This document shows, piece after piece, positions 738-33,022 of a stretch of DNA of 38,317 nucleotides (position 1 is its first letter; every line of letters starts with the position of its first letter). The DNA comes from a virus. Made by a program: the position numbers and the translations under genes. Location: the IMG/VR virus record IMGVR_UViG_3300045918_000165, positions 1-38,317 of that record; one strand, given 5' to 3'. Under the pieces are notes generated by a model, which saw only the letters and a list, made by a program, of their open reading frames with translations, did not search any database and had not been told where the DNA came from.

Positions 738-956
738 ATGCGAAAGATAAAGCCCTGGACCAATCGCGAATTTGCGCGGTTGGCGGAGATGCTGCGCGAG
801 CGGAAGTCAGTGAAAGACATCGCGGCGGCGCTCGAACGATCCGCGAAGTCCGTTTACAACGCGATGGCGCGCGATCCGAAAATCCGGTCTGTCACCGATC
901 AGAAGCGCGCTGTGATCTGGGATCGCTCGCGCCAGGAATGGACGGCTGAGCCATGA
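738..956 (+). CDS. SANT/Myb-like (homeodomain-like) DNA-binding protein
   Basis: The 72-aa product carries one homeodomain-like three-helix unit: a KPWTNREFARL start, a middle helix around LRERKSVKDIAAALERS and a recognition helix SAKSVYNAM. The W at the start of helix 1 and the 'IA..L.RS..SVYN' pattern are typical of SANT/Myb-like and GcrA-like N-termini. The ATG follows AGGAG at ideal distance. The stop overlaps the methyltransferase start by ATGA, so it heads the methyltransferase/replication operon. Likely a DNA-binding regulator or an accessory to replication or packaging; which one cannot be read from sequence. Confidence 0.65.
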   Translation: MRKIKPWTNREFARLAEMLRERKSVKDIAAALERSAKSVYNAMARDPKIRSVTDQKRAVIWDRSRQEWTAEP

Positions 957-1834
957 CGGACCCGCTTGCCATCGATATTTTCTGTGGCCTCGGCGGCTGG
1001 ACGGACGGACTTTTAGCGGAGGGTTATTTCGTGGTCGGGTTTGATATCGAGCGGCATGTTTACGGCAATCACCGCTATCCCGCGCAACTGGTCGTGCAGG
1101 ACGTTCTGACGCTGCATGGGTCGCAGTTCCGGCATGCCGCGCTGATCGTCGCCAGCCCGCCATGCCAGGGCTACAGCTACCGCGCCATGCCATGGAGCCG
1201 CGCCAAGGCACTGCCGCCACCTGACAACTCTCTGTTCGAGGCGTGCTTTCGCATCCAGCGTGAGGCGTGCGAAGCAGCGGGGCATCACATTCCGATGGTC
1301 GTGGAGAACGTGCGCGGCGCTCAGAAGTGGGTCGGGCGCGCGCGTTGGAATTTTGGCAGCTTCTACTTGTGGGGGGATGTCCCGGCGCTGATGCCGATCA
1401 CGTTCTCTCAAGGGCGCAAAAACAATGGCGGGTCGTGGTTCAACATTGGTGGCCCTGGCCAGAAAGTCACCAATCAGAACCCCGTGGCGGACGGCTACAA
1501 AACGCACGGCATGAACTGGTCGGATCAGACCAAGTGCGGCCAGGACTTCACGCGGATCGCGGGGAAGCAGGCGATGGATGGAATCAAAACGCCAGGGCGA
1601 AGTCTGAGCCGTGATGCCGGGAGAAAGTTCGGGACGCACAACATGGGGTCCGGTGAAAAGATCGCCGAAGAACTCGGGCTGAAAAACGGAGGCGACTGGT
1701 TCGGGAAAGGCATTGATTGCTCGCTGCAACGCAAGGCCGCGCCAGGATCAAACGCGAGAAAAGCAGCATCGGCGATGATCGCGAAGATACCTCTGCCGTT
1801 AAGCCGCTACATCGCATCGGTGTTCCGGCCATGA
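953..1834 (+). CDS. C5-cytosine DNA methyltransferase
   Basis: The 293-aa protein has the ordered motifs of Dcm-type enzymes: motif I DIFCGLGGWTDGL (residues 8-20, SAM binding), motif IV SPPCQGYS (about 69-76, with the catalytic cysteine) and motif VI VVENVRG (about 115-121). A variable central part would be the target-recognition region, and the C-terminal KIPLPLSRYIASVF resembles motif X. It transfers a methyl group from S-adenosylmethionine to cytosine C5 in DNA. No restriction enzyme is encoded next to it, so it is an orphan phage methyltransferase that probably shields phage DNA from host restriction. It overlaps its neighbours by 4 bases at both ends. Confidence 0.92.
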   Translation: MTDPLAIDIFCGLGGWTDGLLAEGYFVVGFDIERHVYGNHRYPAQLVVQDVLTLHGSQFRHAALIVASPPCQGYSYRAMPWSRAKALPPPDNSLFEACFRIQREACEAAGHHIPMVVENVRGAQKWVGRARWNFGSFYLWGDVPALMPITFSQGRKNNGGSWFNIGGPGQKVTNQNPVADGYKTHGMNWSDQTKCGQDFTRIAGKQAMDGIKTPGRSLSRDAGRKFGTHNMGSGEKIAEELGLKNGGDWFGKGIDCSLQRKAAPGSNARKAASAMIAKIPLPLSRYIASVFRP

Positions 1835-3379: not shown

Positions 3380-3747
3380 TGCCGGAACCGATCTGCAAGG
3401 CCACGCGGGATGAACTGGAGAAGATGCGCGAGACTGACGCGCGGATCGTGCAGATACTCCACGACCTGACGGCGCGCATCGCGGCATTGGAGCGCGCGGC
3501 GGCGGTCAACGGATGCGGGGAACGGATGCGGGGAACGGGGATGAGGAATACGGTGGCATTGCGGCCTCTGATGCTTTCCGAATTTACCACTCGGAAGGAT
3601 GTCGAATTAACCCCATGGATACAGGGGCATATCGCCGTGTGGCAGCGGGAAGGGTTGGTATCAGTGACGGCCATCACCAAAACCACCGCCTGGGTTGAAC
3701 TGACCCCCAAGGGCCGGGCCGAGATCGAGCGGAAGGGGGGAGTGTGA
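3379..3747 (+). CDS. Hypothetical protein: coiled-coil N-terminus, winged-helix-like C-terminus
   Basis: 122 aa. Residues 8-45 form a charged heptad-like helix (ELEKMRETDARIVQILHDLT). The second half, LRPLMLSEFTTRKDVELTPW through KTTAWVELTPKGRAEIERK, looks like a small winged helix: helices followed by a two-strand wing ending in 'TPKGRAEIE', a pattern frequent in MarR- and PadR-like wings. The start at ATG 3379 is chosen over an in-frame GTG at 3373 because it couples to the preceding stop. Probably DNA-binding, role unknown. Confidence 0.6.
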   Translation: MPEPICKATRDELEKMRETDARIVQILHDLTARIAALERAAAVNGCGERMRGTGMRNTVALRPLMLSEFTTRKDVELTPWIQGHIAVWQREGLVSVTAITKTTAWVELTPKGRAEIERKGGV

Positions 3748-4313
3748 CAACGCGCGCTTTCTCCATCGGCAAAGGCAACACGCGAAAAAACGGCAAGCGG
3801 GAGAAGGATGATTTCTATCCCACCCCGCCAGAGTCAACCCACGCGCTGTTGGCAGTCGAGACGTTCCCCAGCCGTATCTGGGAACCGGCATGTGGCGATG
3901 GCGCGATCTCCAAGATACTGAAACTGGCCGGTCACACCGTCGTCAGCACCGATCTAGTGGACCGTGGGTTCGGAACACCGCGCCGGGACTTCCTGATGGA
4001 ACTGACGCTCGCGGCGCCGTGCATCATCACGAACCCTCCGTTCAAACTGGCTGATGAATTTGTTCTCCATGCTCTGCACCTGGGGGCGTCCAAGGTGGCA
4101 ATCCTGGCCCGTCTGGCGTGGCTGGAAGGCGTGGCACGGCGGGACACACTTTGGCACCGGGAAAATCTGGCGCGGGTGTGGGTGTTCTCCAAGCGGCAGA
4201 CGCTGTGGCGCGGGGATGATGCCAATGCCCAGACGAAGGGAGGGGCGATTGCGTTCGCGTGGTTCGTGTTCGAGCGTGATCACTCTGGACCGGCGGCCCT
4301 GTCGTGGCTCTGA
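3744..4313 (+). CDS. Second adenine-specific DNA methyltransferase
   Basis: 189 aa starting at GTG 3744 (GTGA overlap). It has a SAM-binding motif I (IWEPACGDGAISKILKLAGH, about residues 44-63) after a 'FYPTPPESTHALL' lead, a VVSTDLVDRG motif II and the catalytic motif IV TNPPF (about residues 94-98). The C-terminus with REN..RVWVFSKRQTLW is like other stand-alone phage adenine or cytosine-N4 methyltransferases. No target-recognition domain is obvious, which is normal for this small class. It modifies DNA, presumably against restriction. Confidence 0.87.
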   Translation: MTTRAFSIGKGNTRKNGKREKDDFYPTPPESTHALLAVETFPSRIWEPACGDGAISKILKLAGHTVVSTDLVDRGFGTPRRDFLMELTLAAPCIITNPPFKLADEFVLHALHLGASKVAILARLAWLEGVARRDTLWHRENLARVWVFSKRQTLWRGDDANAQTKGGAIAFAWFVFERDHSGPAALSWL

Positions 4314-9534: not shown

Positions 9535-9903
9535 ATGATCGCCATCGCATCGCTCAACGCCAATCTGGCTCATCTGATCGCCCGCCGGGCTAACTGGATA
9601 CTTCCCCCCGATGGCCACAAAGACCGCCCAGTTGTTGACCGCTTCGTTGCGGCAATCGACGCCGACATCGCTGCGGTTCGCGAGCAGATCGAAGCCCGCC
9701 CCGCGTTGCTGGCCGCGCGTCAGATCGAGATCAACGCCAATCGCCATGCCATCATGACGGCAGCGGCCCGCGCTAATCCAGAGTCCGCTTGCTACAAATG
9801 CGATGGCGTCGGGAAAATCCGGGCTTTCTCGCATATCGAGAACGGCTACTGCTTCGCGTGCGGCGGGGCTGGGGTTCGCAAAATGCGGCGGGTTGCAGCC
9901 TGA
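9535..9903 (+). CDS. DnaJ-type zinc-finger protein (122 aa)
   Basis: ATG 9535 follows AAGGAA at about 8 bases. Residues 1-80 are helical (RFVAAIDADIAAVREQIEAR). The C-terminal part has CYKCDGVGKI and CFACGGAGV, two CxxCxGxG units as in the DnaJ cysteine-rich domain, enough for one zinc. No J-domain is present, so it is not a co-chaperone by itself; such fragments in phages are thought to bind RNA, DNA or protein. It is under the divergent control region. Confidence 0.7.
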   Translation: MIAIASLNANLAHLIARRANWILPPDGHKDRPVVDRFVAAIDADIAAVREQIEARPALLAARQIEINANRHAIMTAAARANPESACYKCDGVGKIRAFSHIENGYCFACGGAGVRKMRRVAA

Positions 9904-9908
9904 CAACC

Positions 9909-9922
9909 GGGGCTTCGGCCCC
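9909..9922 (+). other. UUCG-tetraloop hairpin between two small genes
   Basis: GGGGC (9909-9913), TTCG, GCCCC (9918-9922) makes a five-pair G+C stem capped by an exceptionally stable UUCG loop. It begins 6 bases after the stop of the zinc-finger gene and ends just before the GGAGA ribosome site of the next gene. There is no U tract, so RNA stabilisation or a translational role is more likely than termination. Confidence 0.6.
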
Positions 9923-9937
9923 AACGGAGACGGAATC

Positions 9938-10126
9938 ATGCACGCAATCGTTAAATCCACTCCGGTCACAGTAGACGGCGCCGCCTTCGTGGTGGTCGAG
10001 AATGACGAGGGATGGGTCTTCGCCTTCCGTGACGACGGGCGCGTCAATGGCGATGGTGACGGCGCGTTGAGCATTATCCAGCGCGATCTGCGCCGGAAGG
10101 TCATGGCCGCATACAACGCAGCCTAA
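9938..10126 (+). CDS. Hypothetical 62-aa protein
   Basis: ATG 9938 follows GGAGA at about 8 bases. The product has a beta-like opening (HAIVKSTPVTVDGAAFVVVE), an acidic turn (DDGRVNGDGDG) and a closing helix (IQRDLRRKVMAAYNAA). The stop overlaps by four bases the end of the convergent minus gene at 10123. It may be a small DNA-mimic-like or structural protein; no family recognised. Confidence 0.62.
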   Translation: MHAIVKSTPVTVDGAAFVVVENDEGWVFAFRDDGRVNGDGDGALSIIQRDLRRKVMAAYNAA

Positions 10127-19321: not shown

Positions 19322-19662
19322 TCAGATCAGTTTGCACGCTATTTCTCGCGGCGCTCCTGCTATCGGGCGGGGCGCACGCTTTTACCCAGACCACGCCGCC
19401 TGATATGACCAATATCGCGTGGTCAACGGTGACGTGCGGGTCCACGTCCACGGCGCTTCCGGCGGCCTCGACCTATCAGACAATCCGCATCCCGGCGACG
19501 GCTGGGCAACTCGTGTGGTTTACCTGGGGCCAGGGCGTGACGGCGACAACGGCCACGCCAAGCCAGGACTACGGAGCGGGGACCAACATCGTAACGGGCG
19601 GCGGCGCTGGTGCCTGTATCGTGGCGGCGGGGTCTCAGGCGATCTCCGTCGGCGTTAAATGA
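19318..19662 (+). CDS. Secreted or periplasmic small protein with signal peptide
   Basis: 114 aa starting ATG 19318, overlapping the previous stop. A Sec signal peptide is clear: MIRSVCTLFLAALLLSGGAHA, cleavage likely after AHA. The mature part has two cysteines (CGSTST, GACIVAAGS) and short Thr/Ala-rich strands. It lies between two tail genes, an odd place for an exported protein. It could act on the host periplasm during infection or be an adhesin-like fibre accessory. Also noteworthy as one of three exported proteins in this genome. Confidence 0.6.
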   Translation: MIRSVCTLFLAALLLSGGAHAFTQTTPPDMTNIAWSTVTCGSTSTALPAASTYQTIRIPATAGQLVWFTWGQGVTATTATPSQDYGAGTNIVTGGGAGACIVAAGSQAISVGVK

Positions 19663-21089
19663 CGGTCGTCAACCTCAACGGCGGGGCTTATGTCGCGCGC
19701 TCACTGCTGGCGTCAGCGCAACGATGCGTGAACCTGTATCCAGAGGCGCTGCCACCGGAGCAGGGCGAGGCCGAAGAGACCAAGGTCACGCACTACCCAA
19801 CGCCGGGCCTCACGTTGCTTGCCACGGCCTCGGATGCTGGATGGCGGTGTCTGTATCGGTCCAGCCTCGGAACCGGCTACGGCGTGTCTGGTGCGACGGT
19901 GTATGCGATCTCATCGTCATGGGTGCTGACAGCTATTGGCACGATCAACGCGGGCACCACGATCTGTTCCATGGCCGATAATGGCCTCGATATCATCCTG
20001 GTGGACGGGTCCGCGAACGGCTGGACGATTAACCTGGCGACGAATGCCTTTGCCCAGATCTTCCAGGCGGGGTTCTACGGCGGGACGTTCGTCACCTACA
20101 TCGACACGTTCTTTCTGCTGAATAAGCCCGGAACGAACGAGTTCTATCAGTCCAACAGCCTGTCTACGTTCTTCGATCCGTTGAACTTCGCGGCCAAGGC
20201 GGCCACACCAGATCTGCTGGTCGCGGTGGTCATGGTCGATCATCAGTTGTGGCTGTTGGGCACGTCCATGGGCACCGAGTTATGGAATAACGTGGGCGCG
20301 GCGGCGTTCCCGTTCCAAATCGTGCCCGGCGTGTTCATCGCGCATGGTGTCGCGGCGCCCTATTCGCTCGCCACCATGGACAATGCCATTTTCTGGCTTT
20401 CCCGGTCGCTGGCTGGCGAAACGATGATCCTGCTGGGCAGTGGCTACAAGGCCGAGAGGATCAGCACGCACGCCATGGAAGAGGCGTTGCGCGGGTATTC
20501 CGTCATTACCGATGCCGAGGGATATTGCTATCAGCAGGACGGGCACGAGTTCTACATGCTGACGTTCCCGACTGCGGGGCACACATGGTGCTTTGACCGT
20601 GCAACGAAGCAATGGCACGAGCGGCCTTATATCGACAACGACGGGAACGAACAGCGGCACCGGTCGCGCGTGGCGGCGAACCTCTATCAGACCATCGTGT
20701 GCGGTGATTTCGCCACGGGCGCGCTGTATGAGATGGATCTGGACGCCTACACGGACGCGGGCCAGCCGATCAAGCGCGTGCTGTCATTCCCGCACATCAC
20801 GGCGGGGCAAAATCGCATCTCGTATCAGGAATTTATTGCGATCATGGAGTGCGGCTCGACGGGTCTGAACACGGACTCGCCGCTGTCTCTGCGATGGAGT
20901 GATGACGGCGGGCGCACCTGGGGCAATCCCGTGGTGGACTCGTTCGGGATGAAGGGTGCCTATCTCCAATCGATCCAGTTTCAGCGTTTGGGCATGGCCA
21001 GATCGAGGGTTTTTGAGTTGTCATGGTCCGCGAACGCGAAAACGGCTGTTATCGGCGCGTCGATTGACATGAAGAAGATGGCATCATGA
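19659..21089 (+). CDS. P22 gp10-like packaged DNA stabilisation protein
   Basis: 476 aa (P22 gp10 is 472). ATG 19659 overlaps the previous stop by ATGA. Beta-propeller-like repeats appear as strands ending in Trp/Leu: GTTICSMADNGLDIILVDGS, DHQLWLLGTSMGTELWNNVG, YKAERISTHAMEEALRG. This family (Phage_stabilise, PF11134 type) forms the tail hub below gp4 and keeps DNA in the head. Context after gp4-like gene fits exactly. Confidence 0.85.
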   Translation: MTVVNLNGGAYVARSLLASAQRCVNLYPEALPPEQGEAEETKVTHYPTPGLTLLATASDAGWRCLYRSSLGTGYGVSGATVYAISSSWVLTAIGTINAGTTICSMADNGLDIILVDGSANGWTINLATNAFAQIFQAGFYGGTFVTYIDTFFLLNKPGTNEFYQSNSLSTFFDPLNFAAKAATPDLLVAVVMVDHQLWLLGTSMGTELWNNVGAAAFPFQIVPGVFIAHGVAAPYSLATMDNAIFWLSRSLAGETMILLGSGYKAERISTHAMEEALRGYSVITDAEGYCYQQDGHEFYMLTFPTAGHTWCFDRATKQWHERPYIDNDGNEQRHRSRVAANLYQTIVCGDFATGALYEMDLDAYTDAGQPIKRVLSFPHITAGQNRISYQEFIAIMECGSTGLNTDSPLSLRWSDDGGRTWGNPVVDSFGMKGAYLQSIQFQRLGMARSRVFELSWSANAKTAVIGASIDMKKMAS

Positions 21090-21787
21090 GCGGCAATCTC
21101 TCCATGGAATTGCCCGTGCCTGATGCCGTTCTGGTTACTCCAGATGGGCGCGCCACGCGGATTCTAAGGACCTATCTGCAAATTCTCTCGGCCAGGACGG
21201 GCGGAAGTGCTGGCACGCCGCCCCTGACGGTGGGTGAGGTCAATCTTCTCATCGCGGCTGGCCTGTCACCGGAGACGGCGGCGCGGATCAGCGGCGATAG
21301 CACGAACGCGACGGCTGCGGCGGCGGCTCAGACCACGGCCAGTGCGGCGTTGCCCAAGCTCGGGACCACGACGAACGATAACGCTGCCGCAGGCAACATC
21401 GGAGAGTATATTTCATCCACGGTGCTGGCAGGCGCGGCGGTGGCACTCACGTCCACGGTGACGGCGGACATCACATCGATCTCCCTGACGGCGGGCGACT
21501 GGGATGTTGAGGCAGTGCTGGCATTTGCCCCGGCGGCGACAACCACGGTCACGGTGATCGAGGGCGCGATCTCCCAGACATCGGCCACGCTGCCCACGAT
21601 CCCGGCCTCTGGCGGCTATGCGAGGCTGGCGCTGGCATTCACGGCGGGTGCAACACAGGTGATAGCGACAAGCCGAGCCAGGATGTCCCTGGCGGGCGCT
21701 ACGACAATCTATCTCCCGGCCCGCGCGACGTTCGCAGTGTCCACCATGGGCGCCTACGGCTTCATCGGTGCGAGGCGCCCGCGATGA
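21086..21787 (+). CDS. Small structural protein with fibre/neck-type domain
   Basis: 233 aa. The N-terminal 60 residues are unusual, then an Ala-rich stalk (NATAAAAAQTTASAALPKLG) and a C-terminal beta domain of the type found in phage fibres and neck appendages: TSTVTADITSISLTAGDWDV, then GAISQTSATLPTIP and MSLAGATTIYLPARATF. Likely a virion surface or tail protein. Overlaps both neighbours by 4 bases. Confidence 0.6.
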   Translation: MSGNLSMELPVPDAVLVTPDGRATRILRTYLQILSARTGGSAGTPPLTVGEVNLLIAAGLSPETAARISGDSTNATAAAAAQTTASAALPKLGTTTNDNAAAGNIGEYISSTVLAGAAVALTSTVTADITSISLTAGDWDVEAVLAFAPAATTTVTVIEGAISQTSATLPTIPASGGYARLALAFTAGATQVIATSRARMSLAGATTIYLPARATFAVSTMGAYGFIGARRPR

Positions 21788-22848
21788 TCCGCCCGTATGT
21801 GATCTTTGGCCTCCCCCGCAGCCGGACCTTCTGGCTATCCAGGTTTTTGACCTATGGCGGGTGGAACTGCGGGCACGATGAGCTGCTCCACATGCGCGGC
21901 CTGGACGATCTGAAGTCGTGGCTGTCGCTGCCCAAGCAAGGCACGGTTGAGACTGGCGCCGCACCGTTCTGGCGCACGCTGAAGCGGATGGCGCCTGAAA
22001 CGCGGGTCGTCGTGGTGCAGCGCGATCCTGACCGCGTGTTTAAGAGCATGATGAAGCTGGGCATCCCGTTCGATGAAGACGTGTTGATGCACGAGATCGT
22101 CAAACTCAATCACAAGCTTGATCAGATCAAGGCGCGGTGGCCGGGCGCGCTGTCGGTGACCTATAGCGGTCTCGTTAGCCAGGATAACTGCGCGGAAATC
22201 TTTGAATATTGCATTCCCTACAAGCACGACTTCGAATGGTGGAACGCCATGAAGGCGATCAATCTCCAGGTCGATCTGGCGGCGGAAATCCGATATTTGC
22301 ACGCGCACCAGCCGCAACTGACGAAGCTGGCCGGGATGCTCAAGCAACAGACATTGCGGGATATGGCGCTCCGCTCGGTGGTGGCACCGGAAGGGATGAC
22401 GATTGAGGAAGAACCGTTCCGGCAGGCATGGGATGGCGCGCAGTCTATTATCAAGGACCATCAGGTGTTTGTGGGTGAAGTGCCGGACGGAGGCATCGGG
22501 AAGAACCAGGATATGTTCCAGATGCTTTATGATAACGGCGCGCTCCAGGTGATGACGGCGCGGTCGAATGGCCGGATTTTCGGTTATCTGATGACCACGG
22601 TAACAGGGTCGCTGGAGTCGCCTGATATCAAGTTGGCAGTTCATAACAGCTTCTATGCGTCTCCTGATGTTCCTGGTCTCGGGTTGAAGTTGCAGCGCGC
22701 GGCGTTGAACCGGCTGCGGGACAAGGGTGTGAATGAAGTCGTTTGGCATGCTGGCGTGCGTGGGTCTGGCCCTCGCATGGGGGTGCTGTATAAGCGGCTC
22801 GGCGCGGCGCCTTTCGGGGAACTTTATCATATGAATATGGGGGCTTAG
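21784..22848 (+). CDS. Sulfotransferase-like / GNAT acetyltransferase fusion
   Basis: 354 aa. The N-terminal half has the PAPS-binding loop FGLPRSRTFWLSRFL (residues 8-22, 5'-phosphosulfate loop) and QRDPDRVFKSMMKLG (79-93), which matches the 3'-phosphate motif with R80 and S88. The C-terminal half (about 205-354) is a GNAT domain: GRIFGYLMTTVTGS, VPGLGLKLQRAALNRL (acetyl-CoA loop, degenerate) and VRGSGPRMGVLYKRLGAAPF. It would modify a small molecule, glycan or protein. It sits in the tail module by 4-base overlaps. Inactive or repurposed use is possible. Confidence 0.72.
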   Translation: MIRPYVIFGLPRSRTFWLSRFLTYGGWNCGHDELLHMRGLDDLKSWLSLPKQGTVETGAAPFWRTLKRMAPETRVVVVQRDPDRVFKSMMKLGIPFDEDVLMHEIVKLNHKLDQIKARWPGALSVTYSGLVSQDNCAEIFEYCIPYKHDFEWWNAMKAINLQVDLAAEIRYLHAHQPQLTKLAGMLKQQTLRDMALRSVVAPEGMTIEEEPFRQAWDGAQSIIKDHQVFVGEVPDGGIGKNQDMFQMLYDNGALQVMTARSNGRIFGYLMTTVTGSLESPDIKLAVHNSFYASPDVPGLGLKLQRAALNRLRDKGVNEVVWHAGVRGSGPRMGVLYKRLGAAPFGELYHMNMGA

Positions 22849-24072
22849 ATGGGAATAGCCGCTGGGGCCGCTGCTGCCGCTGGGACTGCCGCCGCTGGCA
22901 TTTCAGCCGGAACGGTCGCGGCTGGCGTGGCTGCTGCTGGAGCGGCTGCCCAGATCGGATCATCGTTGCTTTCATCGAGTGCGGCGAAGAGCGCGGCCGG
23001 TCAATCAGCGGCGGCGTCTGGACAAGCATCGGCGCTACAGCAGGCGCAGCAGGCCCAGACCCGGGCCGATCTATTCCCCTACAACGCGGGCGGTCAGGAC
23101 GCGCTGGCGGCGTTGCGGCATGGCCTCGGCATCGGTGGATGGGCTGGCCAGACTGGCACCAAGGGCACGCCTGGGTATGCCGCCGGGACGCTGCCGCCGG
23201 GTTACTCGATCCAGGACATCGCGGGCACAAATCCTGGCAGCAATTCGCAGGACGCGGCGGATTTTCTCAACTCGCATTACTTGCGGGATGCGACACGGCT
23301 CGCGAACGGCAACTATTCTCTCGATGGGCGCGAGTTCGATCAGAACTGGCAGGAAGTCGGTGGCGGCGCCCAAGGCGGCGGGTTCAAGGTCCTGGATGCC
23401 AACGGCAACGTCGTGGGCACCTACGGCGCTGGGACGGATAAAGCCTCGATCCGGGCGCAGTTTCCCGGCGCGGCGGCCACTCAAGACACGCCAGGCACGG
23501 CTCCCCCTGACGGCTACGGCGCCTATCTCAAGCCGTTCGATGTCAAAACATTCGATATGTCGCCGGAAGCCCTGGCGAACACGCCGGGGTATAGGTTCAA
23601 CCTTCTGCAAGGCCAGCAGGCGGTAACGAACTCGAACGCGGCGAAGGGTCTGGGCATCTCGGGCGCGGCGCTTCGTGGTGCCGCTGACTATGCGACGGGC
23701 CTCGCCAATAGCACGTGGCAGGATCAGGCCAACAACTTCTATCGGGGCCAGGACGCGCAGAGCAGCAACTACTACACGGCGCAGAACAATGCCTATAACC
23801 GGTTGATGGGCACGGCGCAGCTTGGCGAGAACGCGGCGGCGCAGACGGGCGCGCAAGGCACGATAGCTGCTGGTAATGCGGGCAACAATATCGTCGGGGC
23901 GGGTGCGGCGCAGGCGGCTGGCACGGTCGGTCAGGCAAACGCGTTCGGGAATATCGGGACCAGCATCGGGAATGCTTACAACTCGTATCAACAAAACCAG
24001 CTTTACAATTCGCTAACGGCGAAGCTGACGCAGAACGGCGTGTATGGGGCAAACGCAGGCGTAGGCGGTTAA
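22849..24072 (+). CDS. Ejection/DNA transfer protein (gp7- or gp14-like)
   Basis: 407 aa directly abutting the preceding stop. The N-terminal 50 residues are almost all Gly/Ala/Val/Ser (AAAAAGTAAAGISAGTVAAG), able to form a membrane-inserting helix as in T7 gp14. The remainder is Gly-, Asn- and Gln-rich. First of three consecutive ejection-type genes in P22 order (gp7, gp20, gp16). Probably injected with the DNA to form part of the channel across the envelope. Confidence 0.72.
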   Translation: MGIAAGAAAAAGTAAAGISAGTVAAGVAAAGAAAQIGSSLLSSSAAKSAAGQSAAASGQASALQQAQQAQTRADLFPYNAGGQDALAALRHGLGIGGWAGQTGTKGTPGYAAGTLPPGYSIQDIAGTNPGSNSQDAADFLNSHYLRDATRLANGNYSLDGREFDQNWQEVGGGAQGGGFKVLDANGNVVGTYGAGTDKASIRAQFPGAAATQDTPGTAPPDGYGAYLKPFDVKTFDMSPEALANTPGYRFNLLQGQQAVTNSNAAKGLGISGAALRGAADYATGLANSTWQDQANNFYRGQDAQSSNYYTAQNNAYNRLMGTAQLGENAAAQTGAQGTIAAGNAGNNIVGAGAAQAAGTVGQANAFGNIGTSIGNAYNSYQQNQLYNSLTAKLTQNGVYGANAGVGG

Positions 24073-24081
24073 GGAAAAATC

Positions 24082-25506
24082 ATGCCAGTTGATCCAGCCA
24101 CGCTTAACATGATCTCCAGCGGAGGGGTGCAGCCTCAGCCGTTGCCAAATCCGTTGAACAGCCTTCAGCAGTTCACGGGCATATCCAATGCGCTGGTGCA
24201 AAACCAGGTCATGCAGCAGCACATGCAGAACACCGGCATGGACATGGCCACCAAGGGCGCGAACAAGGCGGCGCAGATCCTGGCACCGTATCTCGTCATG
24301 TCCGATGACAAGCTATCCAGCGCGGACATGATCCAGTCATTAGATCAGCGCAACCAGAATGGGGAGTTGCCGCCCGCTGTCTATCAGCAAATCAAGTCCA
24401 CATTGAGCCAGATTGGAGACGACAAACAGAAGCTGCGGCGCTGGGTTGGGGGGGCTTTCACGGCGTCGATGTCATCGCCCGAGCAGGCGCAACAGCTATT
24501 CGGCAGCATGCAGAACGTGCAGGACGGTGAGGTATCGGCGGTCCAGAACGTGCCATCTACGTTTGGCGCGTCTCAACTGGGCCAGGGCGCATCCTTTGTG
24601 CCAGGCAGTAAGATCGGGGCGGGCACAAGCCCAGCAACGAAGGCTGAGTTGGTCGATACGTATGTTCTGGACCCGAAGACGGGCCAGTATAATCGGGTGA
24701 AGGTGGATCGCGGCTCGCTGCCAAACGCATCCGGCAGGAACCCGAACGGGCCTCCCGGCATCGGCGGGGCGCCAGGGATCGGTGGTGCGGGCGCACGCAG
24801 CATGGGGACGGGGGACTACCCCAAGACGGCGCAGGTGGCATCCGGCGCACCCCCCGGCCCGATCCTCGCGGCACCACCGCAGGGGCAGCCGGAGATATTG
24901 GCTGGTGACATCGCGCAATACAGGAAGGACATGGAGGCGATCCCGCAGAGGGAGCAGTCGATACAGACTCTTCTGAAGGCAAAGCATGCGCTGGAGATGG
25001 CCAGCACGGGCAGGGGTAGTGACTCTATCCAGAAGATGAAATCTTACGCTAATACGATTCTTGGAACGAACTTCGACAGCACAACGCCATATGACATCGT
25101 GCATAAATCCCTTCTGGATTATGCCAGGACACAAATGCGGGCGTCTAACACTGATGCGGCTCAATCGGCGTCTATTGGCTCCAATGCCAATGAATTGATT
25201 GATCCGCGCGCGGCGATGGAGGTTGTCAACCTCAACATCGGGCGTGAGCGTCAGTCCATCGTCATGCCGCTGGAGCATCAGACTAATTTGCCGCTCAAGG
25301 ACAGGACCGGCGCTGGGTATAATCAGCATACGCCTAAGTATGCCGGATCGACTGACCCGCGCGCTTTCCAGGCTGATCAGATTTCCCCCGAGGAATTGGA
25401 TAAACTGGTGGAAACCATACGCACGAAAGAAGGACCCGCCGCACTCAAAAGGTTTAAAGACAGCCTCGCGCTAGCAGCCAAGCACGGGAAACTGGATATG
25501 CCCTGA
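24082..25506 (+). CDS. Second ejection protein-like gene
   Basis: 474 aa with AAGGAAA before ATG 24082. Gln-, Asn- and Pro/Gly-rich start (GGVQPQPLPNPLNSLQQFTG), a helical middle (ALEMASTGRGSDSIQKMKSY), and an acidic-basic C-terminus ending in KRFKDSLALAAKHGKLDMP. No sequence family is certain. Position between gp7-like and transglycosylase-bearing genes suggests the gp20-type virion protein of the ejection apparatus. Confidence 0.6.
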   Translation: MPVDPATLNMISSGGVQPQPLPNPLNSLQQFTGISNALVQNQVMQQHMQNTGMDMATKGANKAAQILAPYLVMSDDKLSSADMIQSLDQRNQNGELPPAVYQQIKSTLSQIGDDKQKLRRWVGGAFTASMSSPEQAQQLFGSMQNVQDGEVSAVQNVPSTFGASQLGQGASFVPGSKIGAGTSPATKAELVDTYVLDPKTGQYNRVKVDRGSLPNASGRNPNGPPGIGGAPGIGGAGARSMGTGDYPKTAQVASGAPPGPILAAPPQGQPEILAGDIAQYRKDMEAIPQREQSIQTLLKAKHALEMASTGRGSDSIQKMKSYANTILGTNFDSTTPYDIVHKSLLDYARTQMRASNTDAAQSASIGSNANELIDPRAAMEVVNLNIGRERQSIVMPLEHQTNLPLKDRTGAGYNQHTPKYAGSTDPRAFQADQISPEELDKLVETIRTKEGPAALKRFKDSLALAAKHGKLDMP

Positions 25507-27830
25507 TGGCGGTCAATAGCACTTACGATGATCTGTTCGATCAGGCGGGCCGCGCTTACAACGTGGACCCCGCCATCCCTAAACTTGTGGCTCACATGGA
25601 AAGCGGGGCGAACCCCAATACTCGGGATAGTTCTGCGGGAGCGCAGGGGTTGATGGGCCTCATGCCTGCCACGGGGCGGGCAATGGGCGCCGTCGATATG
25701 CGGGATGTGAAACAAGCTATCTTTGCCGGGACGCGGTATATCCGCGAAGGGCTGGACTCTACCGGGACCGTGCCGGGGGCGCTGGCCTATTACCACGGCG
25801 GGCCTGATAGGGCGCAGTGGGGGCCAAAGACGACGGCCTATGTCGCCAAGGGGATCGGGCTTTTCCCGCAAATGGCGATGAATGTGAAAGGCGATGCGGT
25901 GGCTGGGTCTGATACATCCGAAGGCGATGCCATTCTCCAGAAACTCCTTAAACGGGGTTCGGCGGATCAGGGTGGCGCGTCCGCACCCGCATCGGATGCC
26001 ATGGATGGCGATGCCATCCTCAAGCGGCTCTTGGCCAGGCCCGGCAAGCCGAAAGAAGCGCCCGGCCCTGGCCCGATGGAAACGCCAGAGCCATTGGCAA
26101 ACGCGTCTGATCCTGAAGCACTGCCAAACATCGATGCCCCCGCGACCGCTCGCGCCGTCGGTGGTGTTGGGTCAAACATCCTACAGGCTGGCGCCCAGGG
26201 CGCGGCACAGGCGTTCGGGACAGAGCCGTTCGGGATGGGCGCGCCATTGGTAGCAGGCTTGCAGCGGGCCGGGATTTACCCCCCGGCGGCTGGCCAGGGC
26301 ACGATGATGCAGAACGTCAATCAGGCTGTCATGGGGCCGGTGGCTGCGGGCGTTGATCTCGCTGCCAGGGCTGGCGGGGCGCTGTTCCGCGGCGGTCAGG
26401 CGATGGTTGCCCAGGCTGGGACTGAGGCTGGCGTGCCTGGTTTCGGGCGCGATCTTGCTGCCATGCCAGAGGCGTTCATGGGATCGCCTGGAATGATGGC
26501 AAGCGGCGTCCCATCCGCTGCCATCCGGAACAACCTCATCCGTGAGCAGACGGTCGGCCAGCCGATCCCAAAACCACCAGTGACGGCAGCGCAGTTGATA
26601 GATGCGGTGCGGCAGGCGGACAATGGGAACCCGCTGACTGGCAAGCCGATGAATGGCGCGGCGTCTCCATCCCCGGGCGCGCCTATCCCTGGCGCTCCTG
26701 GCAGCGTTGGCGCGGCGGCGACACCCTCGGCACTGACCAACATGGCTCCACGTGAAGCGGCGGCATCCCGCGCCACGGCGGAAAATTACCATATGATGAA
26801 CCCCACGCCAGAAGCGGGCGATGCCACACGGTTTGTGCCGGGCAGCGAACCAACGGCGGCGGAGGTCGCGCGCGATCCGGTGATCTCCCAGCAATACAAG
26901 GTGGCGGAGCAGGCTCCCGGCAATCAGGGTCCATTCGTGGAACGCCAGGACCTGAACAATAAGGCGCGGATTGCCCATTATGAGAAGTTCGAGGGCACGC
27001 CATCGATCCTGAACCGGATGCGGGACGCGCGCGATGACCAAGCCAAAACTGACTATCCAGCGGCGTTCTCGGGAAAGAAGCCTACCGATCCAACGCCGGT
27101 TGTGGATGCCATCAAGTCCGTCCTAAAGGACCCGCGCGAGGCTGAAAACAGCTACGTCGGGCAATATATCAAGCCGCTGTTGGACCGCTTCACGGACGGC
27201 AAAGGGAACCTGAAGACGGACCCGGAATCGCTCTATGGCATCCGCGAGGACATCGCGCGCATGACATCGCGCTCAACCATCGCGGAAAAACCCACTCTGG
27301 ATCATGTCAGGTCGCAGTTGAGCGGTATCCAGGAAGTGCTTGATGGCGTGATTGAGAAAGGTGCGCCAGGATACAAGCAGTATATGGAGAATTATTCCGC
27401 AGCATCGAAGCCCATTGATGTTATGGAACTTCTTCAGGGCGAGAAGTTGGGCCTCGTGAACGGCTCGGAACGGACGATGACGTTCGCCAAATACGACAAG
27501 TTCATGCGTGATCTGATCGCTGACAGGCAGGCACGGGGGAACAATCAAGCGAAATCTATCCCGCCCGAGACGATGGACGAATTGATGAACATCCATAAGG
27601 ATCTTGCGCGGAAGCAGAACCTGACGCTGGGTGATCCTAAGAGTTCACCGACATCGATGCTCACGCGGGCGGTGAAGGTCGGGGACATCGCCATGCACGG
27701 CGCTATGCTCGGGTATGCCCCGCTCATTGGGAACTACGGCTATCAGATCGGGAGAAACATGATCAATAACAAGCTTCAGCAGCGGACCAACAACAAGCTG
27801 CTGACGGCTCCACCGCCCCCGGTGGACTAA
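25506..27830 (+). CDS. Ejection protein with N-terminal lytic transglycosylase
   Basis: 774 aa. Residues 10-110 are an SLT fold: NVDPAIPKLVAHMESGANPN with the catalytic Glu32, GAQGLMGLMPATGRAMG, then GTRYIREGL and LAYYHGGPD. It would cut peptidoglycan glycan strands to let DNA through. The rest is Pro/Ala-rich, then a long charged helical part (YVGQYIKPLLDRFTDGKGNL) and a C-terminal hydrophobic stretch (MHGAMLGYAPLIGNYGYQIG). Comparable to P22 gp16/T7 gp16. It is the only peptidoglycan-degrading domain I can find in the genome. Confidence 0.85.
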   Translation: MAVNSTYDDLFDQAGRAYNVDPAIPKLVAHMESGANPNTRDSSAGAQGLMGLMPATGRAMGAVDMRDVKQAIFAGTRYIREGLDSTGTVPGALAYYHGGPDRAQWGPKTTAYVAKGIGLFPQMAMNVKGDAVAGSDTSEGDAILQKLLKRGSADQGGASAPASDAMDGDAILKRLLARPGKPKEAPGPGPMETPEPLANASDPEALPNIDAPATARAVGGVGSNILQAGAQGAAQAFGTEPFGMGAPLVAGLQRAGIYPPAAGQGTMMQNVNQAVMGPVAAGVDLAARAGGALFRGGQAMVAQAGTEAGVPGFGRDLAAMPEAFMGSPGMMASGVPSAAIRNNLIREQTVGQPIPKPPVTAAQLIDAVRQADNGNPLTGKPMNGAASPSPGAPIPGAPGSVGAAATPSALTNMAPREAAASRATAENYHMMNPTPEAGDATRFVPGSEPTAAEVARDPVISQQYKVAEQAPGNQGPFVERQDLNNKARIAHYEKFEGTPSILNRMRDARDDQAKTDYPAAFSGKKPTDPTPVVDAIKSVLKDPREAENSYVGQYIKPLLDRFTDGKGNLKTDPESLYGIREDIARMTSRSTIAEKPTLDHVRSQLSGIQEVLDGVIEKGAPGYKQYMENYSAASKPIDVMELLQGEKLGLVNGSERTMTFAKYDKFMRDLIADRQARGNNQAKSIPPETMDELMNIHKDLARKQNLTLGDPKSSPTSMLTRAVKVGDIAMHGAMLGYAPLIGNYGYQIGRNMINNKLQQRTNNKLLTAPPPPVD

Positions 27831-29346: not shown

Positions 29347-29730
29347 ATGCCGGTTTATCAATTAACGTCTGGCAAGCAGATACTCCGGCTGGCGGATGGC
29401 GCTTTCATTCCGCCCACGCAGGAGAACGCTGACTATCGCGATTACATCGCATGGGTGGCGAAGGGCAATGCGCCCGATGCCGTGCCCGTGCCTGCCGTCA
29501 CCAAGCCTCAATCCATCCCCGCCACGGCATTTCTCAACCGCTTCTCCCTCACGGCCAAGACCATGCTTTTCGCCGCCGCTGGCCGGGACCCGAACATGTT
29601 ACAACTGGTTGTGACTGCCGCCGCCGCTGGCATCATCAATCTAGCCGATCCCGACGTTCAGGCGGGCGTTAATAGCCTTGTGCCTGCTATTCTCACCGCA
29701 CCCGAAGCCGCCATCATATTGGATCACTGA
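29347..29730 (+). CDS. Fibre-associated small protein (127 aa)
   Basis: ATG 29347 with GGGGAG about 6 bases upstream. The N-terminus QLTSGKQILRLADGAFIPPT and the ENADYRDYIAWVAKGNAP segment are common in small proteins found next to phage fibres, sometimes described as assembly chaperones. C-terminal half is Ala-rich helices. Just before the giant SGNH fibre. Probable fibre chaperone or connector; function not proven. Confidence 0.6.
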   Translation: MPVYQLTSGKQILRLADGAFIPPTQENADYRDYIAWVAKGNAPDAVPVPAVTKPQSIPATAFLNRFSLTAKTMLFAAAGRDPNMLQLVVTAAAAGIINLADPDVQAGVNSLVPAILTAPEAAIILDH

Positions 29731-29731
29731 C

Positions 29732-32700
29732 ATGCGCCGTATCCTGCCGTTTTTGATGATGCTCGCGGCGCTCCCCGCCTGGGGGCAAGATGTGTCCGGC
29801 CCGTTTGTCGGACCTGGCGTGACAGGCCGGAACCAGATCAACACCATGCCGGGGTTCCGCACACCGGGCGAGTTCGGCGCTGCGGGCGATGCCATAAGGG
29901 CATGGGGCCTGACGTTCTCCACGGCGGCCTCGGCCAGCCCTACCGTCAGCATGATGGGGACGTATCAAATCCAATCCGCGACGGTGGTGTGCAACACGGC
30001 AACCTCTGCGGTGACGGTCACGCTGCCAGGCGGTGCCACGCTGCCATCGTTCCTGGCCAATTCCGGGACGTGGCGGGTCTATATTTCCAACTGCGGCGCG
30101 GCATCTGGCACCACCAACAACCAGTTGACCAGCGTCACCGGGACCGGCCCCTATACCTTCAACCTGGATGCCGTGGCCGGGACCACGTTTTCAGGAACGT
30201 CGCGCATCGTGATCGGGCCAACCGGCTCCACGGCGGGCGTCACCACCACGACGAACGCGAATAGCGGCACCTATCACCAGTGGCGGATCGACGCTTGCAC
30301 GATCTCCGGCACGACGCTGACATGCCCCAATGGGCCATTCATGACCGTGCGGGATTTCACACAGAGCGGGCCGGAAGGGCTGCTATCGACCTACATCAAC
30401 ATTCAGGACCCGGTGGGCGTCTGCCCTGACTTCCGCACGCGCATCCTGACCACGGCGAGTGCTACGGCGGCCACGCTGGAATCGGCGCCATCCTGCCAAA
30501 ACTACGGGGCGAACTTGGCGCTTTGGTGGGGGCCGCTGCTGTTCCCCACGACGATTGCCACCGGCCCGACGATCAGCGGCACGCCATGGACGTGCGAGTT
30601 CGCGGACACCGGCACGGCCTCGGCACCCCAGGCGCTTGCCGCATCCGCCTACGTCGATCCGTTCCATGCCACTTTTTCGGGCACCACCGTTACATCGCGG
30701 GTCGCGGTCAGGACCACGCTCACATGCGGCACGCCAGACGATACCGCGCTCGATAACACTGCCACGGCGGCGCTCAACGCGGGGTATGATTCGCTCTATC
30801 TGCCACCGGGTAAAAACTACCTGAAAACATCAACGACTTCCGCCGCGTCCTCTCTAGGTGGCGTGATCCTATGCAGCGACGGGATGCCCTCAGGCCGCAT
30901 TTTCTACCCGCTGAGCACGCCATCGCTGAAAAACGCGGTGCGCTGCACCCCCGCTCAGCCGATCTCCGTTCCTCAGACATCGATCAATTGGGACGCGCAC
31001 ATGCGGTCGGCGCAGTTCGCCAGCGGCACGGTTAAGGTCGTGGTGTTCGGGGATAGCATGATCTCGAACGGCTCCAACGGCATGGGCGAGGCCGGGTCAG
31101 GGTCCTACAACTTCGGCCAGTGGCTTTCCCGTGCATTGAACAAGCCCGTCCAGGTCTATCCCTATGCGATTGGCGGCACGCTCCTGGCCAACCTCGCGCC
31201 CAATTTCCCCGTCAACGTCTCGGCCAACGGCATCGGCATCCCAACGGCTGCCCAGGTCTCCACGGCGCTCTGGTATACCAACGGCACGCAGAAATGGATC
31301 GACTACGGCAAGGCGGTGTGCCCGCATATCGTGATGCTGGGGTTTCAGAATGACGGCTACAACCTGCCATGGTCCGCCTATTGGGACGTGTTGACCTACA
31401 TGAACGGCGCCGCGTGGCAGTCTTCATGCGGGTTCACACCGTCGATCATCTGGATCACGACGGGGATGTTCTCCCTGACGCAATCCAACGCGGGCACGCA
31501 CGAAAGCGGCTTTTACAGCCAGGACTTCTATCGTTCCTCGATCATGGCTGGTGACTATCCCACGATGGCCAACGGCGGACAGGTCGGGCTTCTCGATCTC
31601 CATAATGAGTATGTGAAGGCGACGGTTGGCGTCGATCACGTCTATGCGCCTCCGATGGTCCGGGCGATGTATTCCACACCGCCAACCCTGGCGAATGGTG
31701 GGCCGCAGAATAGCTTTCCTTATACGTGGCCTCGTCCGGTGCGGAACTATTCGTTCCTATCTCAACTACGGGTATCGGCGCCGACAAACCAGACATCATC
31801 GACGTGGTGGAATACGACGATGGGCGGCAGCATCAACATGCCGCTCGGGAACGGGGCCGCTGGGACACCAAACCTCATCAACGGCCAGTCCAGCCCGGCG
31901 GCGATTGGCTATCCTGGCGGCCAGATATCTCTGACGCGGGACGCTGGCGGCAACATCGCTTACACCGGCTACACGTTCCGGTTCTCTCAGACCGCCACAT
32001 GCACGGTCGTGACGGTCACACTGACATGCACAACGGCGGTCGCGAACGCTGGGCACTATTACGCGGATATCATCGTGCAGGGCGCGGGCGCGGCGACATG
32101 CCCGGTGGAAGTCGGCGGGGCGAACTGCCTCATCACCACCATCGCGCCAGCGGGTGTATCGGCGGACGGCAAGACGATCACGATGGTTGGCAGCGGCACC
32201 CTCGGATCATCGTCCACCACGGTCATCATTCAGCACAAGTTCGTCAACACCACGATCAGCACGATCTCGGGCCTGATCAACAATGGCGGCGATGGCGCCC
32301 CGGCATGCACCACGTGCGGGCTGCAGAACGGCATCAGCATGACGCTCAAGGGGCCGTTCGCCTCGATCGGCGACAGTCAGGTGTCGAACGTGCCGATCTT
32401 CCAGGGGCCGGTTGTGCGGTTCGGCGGGCGGTTCAAACCCATCATCACCATTGGCCTGGCAGGCACCACGACGCCAGCCAGCCAGTTTTCGTTTCCGCAG
32501 ATGCAGAACTCTCAGCCGAACTCGGCGGATGACGGTGACGACTTTACCCCGTTCACGCCAACCTACACGGATTACAAGTGCTGGGGCCAGCCGCCCGGGT
32601 ATGTCGGGCCAGAGGGCGGCGGATCGAACGCGCATATCGCCATCGGGTGCATGTCCACGCTGATCCAGACGCTTGTGAGCGGCCAGAACGGTTCGGCGTT

Positions 32701-33022
32701 CAAAACGGTTCCGGGTAGCACCGTCATGAACATCACGGCCAATGCCCAGATCACGACGATCCCGGCGGGGGCAACGCTGGTGGGGATCGACATCATCAAC
32801 ACCACGGCGAACGCGGTGACGGGCGGGATCAACATCGGGACGGCTGCGGCGGGATCTGACGTGGTCCTGGCCTTCGCGGTCGGGGCCTCGGCCAACGTGG
32901 CGCCAACGGACGCCCAGATCCTAAAGCGGACCTTCGCGAACACCGCGCAAGGCATCTTCATCTCAGCGGTGACGGCTTGGAACAGCGCCAACTTGACCGT
33001 CCGCGTGCGGTGGGCGCAGTGA
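29732..33022 (+). CDS. Large tail fibre/spike with SGNH hydrolase domain and a signal peptide
   Basis: 1096 aa. Residues 1-19 (MRRILPFLMMLAALPAWG) form a Sec signal peptide ending before QDVSG. A central SGNH/GDSL hydrolase is visible: VVVFGDSMISNG with Ser442, YAIGGTLL as the second block, MLGFQNDGYN as the third with Asn, and VGVDHVY about residue 635 with Asp and His. It would remove acetyl or other esters from surface polysaccharide. The flanks are Thr/Gly-rich beta repeats. A signal peptide on a fibre is unusual. Confidence 0.8.
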   Translation: MRRILPFLMMLAALPAWGQDVSGPFVGPGVTGRNQINTMPGFRTPGEFGAAGDAIRAWGLTFSTAASASPTVSMMGTYQIQSATVVCNTATSAVTVTLPGGATLPSFLANSGTWRVYISNCGAASGTTNNQLTSVTGTGPYTFNLDAVAGTTFSGTSRIVIGPTGSTAGVTTTTNANSGTYHQWRIDACTISGTTLTCPNGPFMTVRDFTQSGPEGLLSTYINIQDPVGVCPDFRTRILTTASATAATLESAPSCQNYGANLALWWGPLLFPTTIATGPTISGTPWTCEFADTGTASAPQALAASAYVDPFHATFSGTTVTSRVAVRTTLTCGTPDDTALDNTATAALNAGYDSLYLPPGKNYLKTSTTSAASSLGGVILCSDGMPSGRIFYPLSTPSLKNAVRCTPAQPISVPQTSINWDAHMRSAQFASGTVKVVVFGDSMISNGSNGMGEAGSGSYNFGQWLSRALNKPVQVYPYAIGGTLLANLAPNFPVNVSANGIGIPTAAQVSTALWYTNGTQKWIDYGKAVCPHIVMLGFQNDGYNLPWSAYWDVLTYMNGAAWQSSCGFTPSIIWITTGMFSLTQSNAGTHESGFYSQDFYRSSIMAGDYPTMANGGQVGLLDLHNEYVKATVGVDHVYAPPMVRAMYSTPPTLANGGPQNSFPYTWPRPVRNYSFLSQLRVSAPTNQTSSTWWNTTMGGSINMPLGNGAAGTPNLINGQSSPAAIGYPGGQISLTRDAGGNIAYTGYTFRFSQTATCTVVTVTLTCTTAVANAGHYYADIIVQGAGAATCPVEVGGANCLITTIAPAGVSADGKTITMVGSGTLGSSSTTVIIQHKFVNTTISTISGLINNGGDGAPACTTCGLQNGISMTLKGPFASIGDSQVSNVPIFQGPVVRFGGRFKPIITIGLAGTTTPASQFSFPQMQNSQPNSADDGDDFTPFTPTYTDYKCWGQPPGYVGPEGGGSNAHIAIGCMSTLIQTLVSGQNGSAFKTVPGSTVMNITANAQITTIPAGATLVGIDIINTTANAVTGGINIGTAAAGSDVVLAFAVGASANVAPTDAQILKRTFANTAQGIFISAVTAWNSANLTVRVRWAQ

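What the first reader, a model, noticed from the sequence alone, without database searches (positions are those of the whole stretch)
21784..22848. Sulfotransferase-like domain fused to a GNAT acetyltransferase in the tail module
The N-terminus has both phosphate-binding motifs of PAPS sulfotransferases (5' loop at 8-22, R80 and S88 of the 3' motif) and the C-terminus looks like GNAT. I know of GNATs in this position in podoviruses but not of this fusion. It may decorate the virion, the host surface or a small molecule with sulfate and acetyl groups, perhaps changing receptors or self-exclusion.
Basis: partly seen in the sequence, partly recalled or inferred. Interest (0 to 1): 0.75.

Follow-up and report, generated by a model that had tools for sequence, protein, structure and literature searches.

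The report
Phage sulfotransferase–acetyltransferase fusion enzyme
This virus of bacteria carries, right next to the genes for the proteins it injects into its host, one protein made of two chemical-modification enzymes joined together (a sulfate-adding and an acetyl-adding one); the fusion is conserved in many related viruses, which suggests that short-tailed phages may chemically modify parts of their own injection machine.

Summary
The ORF at 21784-22848 encodes a 354-aa fusion of a PAPS-sulfotransferase-fold domain (residues 1-197; nearest solved folds are sulfotransferases) and a GNAT domain (203-354; VIA Z about 16). It is not a one-off: 18 non-redundant ST-GNAT proteins occur in viral contigs and prophages (Azospirillum, Magnetospirillum, Sphingomonas, Nevskia, Beijerinckiaceae), but none in 50,697 annotated phage records. 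PAPS-site residues are kept (R80, S88 18/18) and both domains are under purifying selection. In 16/16 dereplicated cases the gene lies directly upstream of the T7 gp14/P22 gp7-type ejection-protein gene, in P22-type and T7-type podoviruses: the 'T7 gene 13 slot', which holds a plain GNAT in VpV262 and SIO1. One relative fuses a gp13-like internal-virion-protein domain to ST-GNAT; some ST-only relatives stand next to Asp/Asn-hydroxylase-like genes in the same slot. The most likely role (inferred) is late covalent modification of ejection or tail proteins during assembly; envelope decoration, an injected effector or a dead structural role remain possible. Folds and slot are known; the architecture, and a sulfotransferase in this slot, appear undescribed: a new variant of a known kind.

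The parts
21784..22848 (+). ST-GNAT fusion gene, 354 aa (P0001)
   Evidence: 18-member conserved family
21784..22374 (+). N-terminal PAPS-sulfotransferase-fold domain, residues 1-197
   Evidence: AF2 pLDDT 95.6, pTM 0.91; Foldseek/VIA best hits are sulfotransferases
21805..21849 (+). 5'-phosphosulfate-binding loop, residues 8-22 (FGLPRSRTFWLSRFL)
   Evidence: P11 47/47, R12 46/47 (K in the other), S13 46/47, T/S15 47/47, W17 47/47 in fused plus unfused relatives
21868..21879 (+). C29-G30-H31-D32, candidate catalytic-base segment
   Evidence: H31 47/47, residue 32 always D or E, C29 46/47; catalytic role inferred
22021..22047 (+). 3'-phosphate-binding motif R80 ... S88
   Evidence: R80 46/47, S88 47/47; both 18/18 in the fused family
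22390..22845 (+). C-terminal GNAT acetyltransferase domain, residues 203-354
   Evidence: VIA Z up to 16.1, rmsd 2.5, 144 aligned; phrog_1249
22666..22683 (+). GNAT motif A, residues 295-300 (DVPGLG); G298 and G300 invariant, the usual leading Q/R is absent
19659..21089 (+). P22 gp10-like head closure/nozzle protein upstream
   Evidence: phrog_578 E 2e-102
21086..21787 (+). tail fibre-type gene directly upstream, 4-base ATGA overlap
   Evidence: phrog_11393 E 1.9e-16
22849..24072 (+). first ejection protein (T7 gp14/P22 gp7 type, Gly/Ala-rich hydrophobic N-terminus), start codon directly after the ST-GNAT stop
   Evidence: phrog_598 'DNA ejection' E 1.2e-11; sequence
24082..25506 (+). second gene of the ejection set by position (no family match)
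25506..27830 (+). large ejection protein with SLT transglycosylase domain
   Evidence: PF01464 E 3e-12

Best explanation
The gene encodes a bifunctional group-transfer enzyme: an N-terminal PAPS-dependent sulfotransferase joined to a C-terminal acetyl-CoA-dependent GNAT. It is made late, translationally coupled between tail and ejection-protein genes, in the slot that T7 uses for gene 13. SHOWN by computation: the fold of both domains, conservation of the cofactor-binding residues, purifying selection, the fusion as a conserved family, and its fixed position before the gp14/gp7-type ejection protein. INFERRED: that it binds PAPS and acetyl-CoA and is active; that its substrate is a phage protein of the ejection or tail complex (perhaps the neighbouring outer-membrane-pore ejection protein), modified during assembly so that it stays soluble, packs, or works on ejection; whether the enzyme stays in the virion is open.
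For: Fold of the ST domain: top 17 VIA rows are all PAPS sulfotransferases, Z 12.0-10.0; five of Foldseek's first six are tyrosylprotein sulfotransferases, the other is Cpz8. GNAT Z up to 16. Invariant P11, R14, W17, C29, H31, G53, E56, T57, R80, S88 and GNAT G298/G300 in 18 non-redundant fusions. dN/dS 0.02-0.22 in both domains for the informative pairs. The immediate downstream gene has an ejection-type hydrophobic Gly/Ala N-terminus in 16/16 fused and 19/45 unfused ST genes against 4.5% of 781 background pairs. Position between nozzle and ejection genes in P22-type and T7-type phages. L020/L160: phrog_308 internal virion protein (E 2.3e-10) + ST + GNAT in one protein; Magnetospirillum prophage: separate phrog_308 gene just before ST-GNAT. 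Plain GNAT in the same slot in VpV262 and SIO1, and the VpV262 GNAT is among the best viral structural matches. Asp/Asn beta-hydroxylase-like genes (PF05118) between ST and the ejection gene in a few contigs, another type of protein-modifying enzyme in the slot.
Against: No activity, substrate or virion-proteome evidence. The same ST domain without GNAT sits among non-structural genes in Pseudomonas siphophages, so ejection is not its only context. In podovirus YA3 the slot's acetyltransferase (ORF13) is not among the virion proteins named in the text of the MS study (PMC7326022). The GNAT domain shows no profile match to the gp13-like family, so slot sharing is positional, not shown homology. 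Members that lack the GNAT exist inside the fused clade (L019, L157, L158). Synteny counts are not phylogenetically independent.
Confidence: 0.45

Rival explanations
1. Host-envelope decoration: the enzyme sulfates and acetylates LPS, capsule or another surface glycan late in infection, masking receptors (superinfection exclusion, release from debris). This is.
For: Many sulfotransferases act on sugars; the solved relatives include glycan and antibiotic sulfotransferases (NDST, 3-OST, Stf0, StaL). Prophage members exist, where lysogenic conversion would pay.
Against: Located inside the ejection operon rather than beside integrase or glycan genes; synteny with the first ejection gene is fixed across two podovirus types. 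No membrane or export feature is evident in the two-domain model.
Confidence: 0.2
2. Injected effector: the protein is packaged with the gp13-like/ejection set, enters the new host and modifies a host target (defence factor, RNA polymerase, small molecule).
For: Fusion to a gp13-like internal virion protein domain in L020; a phage GNAT that acts on host RNA polymerase is reported (Rac, cited in PMC10269572).
Against: No evidence that gp13-slot GNATs are in virions; not named among YA3 virion proteins.
Confidence: 0.15
3. Catalytically dead assembly factor or chaperone for the neighbouring ejection protein that has kept enzyme folds, as the gp13-like family of this slot may be (its members lack a GxG loop).
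For: The slot's phrog_308 family lacks the GNAT CoA loop and is annotated as internal virion or scaffold protein. The GNAT of P0001 lacks the usual Q/R of motif A.
Against: Strict conservation of PAPS-site residues (S88 47/47, R80 46/47) and of G298/G300 in 18/18, unexpected for a dead scaffold.
Confidence: 0.15
4. The N-terminal domain is not a sulfotransferase but a nucleotide kinase/hydrolase of the P-loop class (relatives are annotated 'hydrolase' or 'nucleotide triphosphate hydrolase').
For: Annotation of phrog_10855 and PaMx25-type proteins; gluconate, adenylate and guanylate kinases follow in the fold lists.
Against: No GxxxxGK[ST] P-loop; PRS[RG]T loop plus R-x7-S motif; sulfotransferases rank above kinases in both fold comparisons; Pfam sulfotransferase families.
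Confidence: 0.05

Closest known systems
GNAT of the podovirus 'gene 13 slot' (VpV262 ORFS, SIO1 pc40, cobavirus GNAT)
   Same: Same place: nozzle/tail appendage - GNAT - small gp14-like gene - large internal virion protein (with one or two small genes between in VpV262; PMC6775973). VpV262's GNAT is a top viral structure match.
   Different: Those are single-domain GNATs without the sulfotransferase domain.
T7 gp13 / phrog_308 internal virion protein A
   Same: Same slot before gp14; covalently fused to ST-GNAT in L020 and adjacent to it in Magnetospirillum prophages.
   Different: P0001 itself has no phrog_308 match, and the profiles do not match. The phrog_308 rows lack the CoA GxG loop.
Phage sulfotransferase-family proteins (phrog_10855; Sulfotransfer_3 proteins of OM43 phages and cyanophages)
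   Same: phrog_10855: same domain and PAPS motifs. The function of phage sulfotransferases is described as unclear (PMC10580990).
   Different: Stand-alone, often listed as auxiliary metabolic genes (PMC8290583); the siphophage ones lie outside the virion module.
Tyrosylprotein sulfotransferases (TPST1/2) and bacterial PAPS sulfotransferases (Cpz8, SgdX2, olefin-synthase ST)
   Same: Fold and PAPS site; VIA Z 11-12 for TPST and olefin-synthase ST.
   Different: 14-19% identity, smaller domain (197 aa); substrate specificity not inferable.

Membership tests
PAPS-dependent sulfotransferase superfamily | Sulfotransferase alpha/beta fold | tested here: met
   AF2 pLDDT 95.6; VIA ranks 1-17 are sulfotransferases, Z 12.0-10.0; Foldseek E 7e-5 to TPST
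PAPS-dependent sulfotransferase superfamily | 5'-phosphosulfate-binding loop (P-[KR]-S-x-[TS]) | tested here: met
   PRSRT, conserved in 47 relatives apart from one K for R and one C for S
PAPS-dependent sulfotransferase superfamily | 3'-phosphate motif Arg-x7-Ser | tested here: met
   R80 and S88 18/18 in fusions; 46/47 and 47/47 overall
PAPS-dependent sulfotransferase superfamily | Catalytic base (His or Glu/Asp) | tested here: inconclusive
   H31 invariant and D/E32 always acidic; role not testable from sequence
PAPS-dependent sulfotransferase superfamily | PAPS binding and sulfate transfer | not testable with these tools
   needs biochemistry
GNAT acetyltransferases | GNAT fold | tested here: met
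   VIA Z up to 16.1
GNAT acetyltransferases | Motif A [QR]xxGx[GA] | tested here: inconclusive
   GxG invariant (G298, G300), leading Q/R not conserved
GNAT acetyltransferases | Acetyl-CoA-dependent activity | not testable with these tools
   needs biochemistry
T7 gp13 / phrog_308 internal virion protein | Sequence-profile match to phrog_308 | tested here: not met
   No match in P0001 or in the window; only the extra N-terminal domain of L020/L160 matches
T7 gp13 / phrog_308 internal virion protein | Gene position between nozzle and gp14-like gene | tested here: met
   compare TL-2011b and Tyrion
Tyrosylprotein sulfotransferase | Acts on tyrosine in peptides | not testable with these tools
   Only fold similarity

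The most novel reading that the evidence does not exclude
Short-tailed phages keep a 'modification slot' in the ejection operon, filled with protein-modifying enzymes (GNAT, sulfotransferase, ST-GNAT fusion, Asp/Asn hydroxylase), that covalently tailor the ejection proteins: a dedicated sulfation/acetylation of a phage DNA-injection machine, by a protein sulfotransferase encoded by a bacterial virus.
Probability: 0.25. Interest if true: 0.85.

Novelty: new variant of a known kind. Interest (0 to 1): 0.6.

Why it matters
What T7 gp13 and the GNATs found beside podovirus ejection proteins do is unsettled, and the function of phage sulfotransferases is described as unclear (PMC6775973, PMC10580990). 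A conserved fusion of the two chemistries, locked to the first ejection-protein gene, links both puzzles and makes them testable with one mass-spectrometry experiment. If the ejection proteins are modified, models of DNA-ejectosome assembly built on unmodified proteins would need revision.

Tried and rejected
(1) tblastn of P0001 against 50,697 phage records and 72,556 plasmids: no match at 1e-5 / 1e-3, so no close relative of the fusion in those records. (2) Single-sequence scans of viral contigs with P0001 and with the portal found nothing; alignment-based scans were needed. (3) L018 at first looked like a 752-aa protein with a long N-terminal extension; the first ~397 residues are an out-of-frame overlap with the nozzle gene and were dropped. 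(4) Homology of the GNAT domain to gp13/phrog_308: no profile match, so not claimed. The A9-vs-A2 comparison is circular because A2 contains the query, and is not used. (5) Myristoylation-like use of the 'MG...' N-termini of the ejection proteins was considered; phages without ST-GNAT start with MS, MT or MG, so nothing points to it. (6) PDB sequence searches gave only weak hits (the de novo helix-bundle and repeat-protein hits are artefacts). (7) NCBIfam: no match for the ST domain. (8) Prevalence: among 385 alphaproteobacterial genomes only the centre genome has the fusion, so it is rare. (9) The whole-protein VIA list covers only the GNAT half, so the ST half was predicted and searched alone.

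Full report
WHAT IS THERE. The window is a 38,317-base IMG/VR virus record with a P22-type podovirus virion module: TerL (PF04466), P22-like portal (PF16510, E 4e-150), scaffold, P22-type coat protein, gp4-like and gp10-like (phrog_578) proteins, a fibre gene, the finding, then ejection genes including phrog_598 and an SLT transglycosylase protein. The ORF 21784-22848 is intact, overlaps the fibre gene by ATGA, and is followed without a gap by the first ejection gene.

THE SULFOTRANSFERASE DOMAIN. Pfam Sulfotransfer_4 passes its cut-off. Residues 1-197 predicted alone from 47 relatives give pLDDT 95.6 and pTM 0.91. Foldseek's six best PDB matches are PAPS sulfotransferases, five of them tyrosylprotein sulfotransferases. 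In the VIA second look ranks 1-17 are sulfotransferases (Z 12.0 for 4gox, rmsd 3.2, 163 aligned; TPST1 Z 11.6), with a tRNA ligase kinase module and nucleotide kinases mixed in below. The 5' loop (PRSRT) and the 3' motif (R80, S88) are nearly invariant over 47 fused and unfused relatives: P11 47/47, R12 46/47, W17 47/47, H31 47/47, residue 32 always D/E, R80 46/47, S88 47/47.

THE GNAT DOMAIN. The whole-protein model (pLDDT 87.7, pTM 0.58, so the two domains are well predicted but their mutual placement is not) matches GNATs with Z up to 16 over residues 203-354, and phrog_1249 'acetyltransferase' matches by sequence. G298 and G300 of the CoA loop are invariant in 18/18 fusions; the Q/R that usually leads the motif is not kept.

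THE FUSION IS A FAMILY. Alignment-guided scans found 28 viral loci and 9 genome loci, most with both domains in one frame; at under 90% identity there are 18 fusions. They include Azospirillum rugosum, Magnetospirillum fulvum and M. molischianum and MAGs of Sphingomonas, Nevskia and Beijerinckiaceae. On a tree of 79 ST domains the fused label needs 4 changes against 15.5 for shuffled labels. One of these (L159) is only a contig end, and L019 and L157/L158 look like losses of the GNAT half, so one origin followed by losses is plausible but not proven. dN/dS is 0.02-0.22 for the informative pairs in both halves. No relative of the fusion was found in 50,697 phage records at E 1e-5, and it is rare among alphaproteobacterial genomes (1 of 385, the centre itself).

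WHERE IT SITS. In P22-type relatives the order is gp10-like protein - fibre gene(s) - ST-GNAT - ejection protein 1; in T7-type relatives (Azospirillum, Magnetospirillum, L020) it is T7-type nozzle (phrog_376) - [gp13-like] - ST-GNAT - gp14-like. The gene directly downstream starts with a Gly/Ala-rich hydrophobic stretch typical of gp14/gp7-type ejection proteins in 16/16 fused and 19/45 unfused cases, against 4.5% of background neighbours; a few of the 19 (for example L013, L043) are plain small membrane proteins, and related sequences are not independent, so this is a strong pattern and not a p-value. Known phages hold a phrog_308 internal virion protein (TL-2011b, Tyrion) or a plain GNAT (VpV262, SIO1) in this slot; Bischoff et al. 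proposed that the SIO1 GNAT corresponds to T7 gp13 (PMC6775973). In L020 a phrog_308 domain is fused in front of ST-GNAT; in a Magnetospirillum prophage it is the separate preceding gene. In three ST-only contigs an Asp/Asn beta-hydroxylase-like gene stands between ST and the ejection gene (PF05118 above cut-off in two of them).

HOW IT MOST LIKELY WORKS. Shown: domain folds, conserved cofactor sites, selection, family, position. Inferred: catalysis; a substrate in the ejection or tail complex; timing in late morphogenesis. I favour covalent tailoring of ejection or tail proteins (0.45) over envelope decoration (0.2), an injected effector (0.15), a dead assembly factor (0.15) and a non-sulfotransferase P-loop enzyme (0.05). 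Against virion residence: the slot acetyltransferase of phage YA3 is not named among the virion proteins found by MS (PMC7326022), so an assembly-time enzyme that leaves the particle fits as well. The same ST domain in Pseudomonas siphophages lies among DNA-metabolism genes, so its chemistry is not tied to ejection everywhere.

COMPARISON AND NOVELTY. It is a member of the sulfotransferase fold superfamily and, by fold, of the GNATs. It is not a member of phrog_308/gp13 (no match), though it occupies that slot. The fusion, and a sulfotransferase in the ejection slot, were not found in the papers searched (open-access library only). I rate it a new variant of a known kind.

Noticed in passing
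L020 4464-5993 (= L160 5464-6993): Triple architecture: T7-gp13-like internal virion protein domain (phrog_308) + sulfotransferase + GNAT in one 509-aa protein.
   Followed up: partly
L084 5518-6153, L093 5570-6151, L072 5555-6214: Asp/Asn beta-hydroxylase-like gene (PF05118; above the cut-off in L084 and L093, weak in L072) between a stand-alone sulfotransferase and the first ejection gene.
   Followed up: partly
L012 4004-4525, L013 3992-4543 (PaMx25, Ab18): Phage proteins annotated 'hydrolase'/'nucleotide triphosphate hydrolase' (phrog_10855) carry sulfotransferase PAPS motifs; the annotation looks wrong.
   Followed up: partly
L165 about 9536-10004: The gp13-like gene upstream of ST-GNAT in the Magnetospirillum fulvum prophage appears split into two open frames, while the M. 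molischianum copy (L166 9537-10004) is whole.
   Followed up: no
L015 (PQ492659.1, Limnohabitans phage DC33): Record is classed as Inoviridae (filamentous) but is 39 kb and carries a gp14-like gene and a slot GNAT; the taxonomy line looks wrong.
   Followed up: no
window 953-1834 and 3744-4313: Two DNA methyltransferase genes of different families (PF00145/phrog_363 and phrog_799, E 5e-60) in the early region.
   Followed up: no
window 29678-33022: 1114-aa ORF without any Pfam or PHROG match, just after the fibre genes; a tailspike candidate.
   Followed up: no
L006 9396-9869, L009 10218-10667: In other P22-type phages the gene before ejection protein 1 is a small protein matching 'short tail fiber' families (tested for L006; the L009 protein looks alike but had no Pfam match) instead of a GNAT or ST.
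   Followed up: partly
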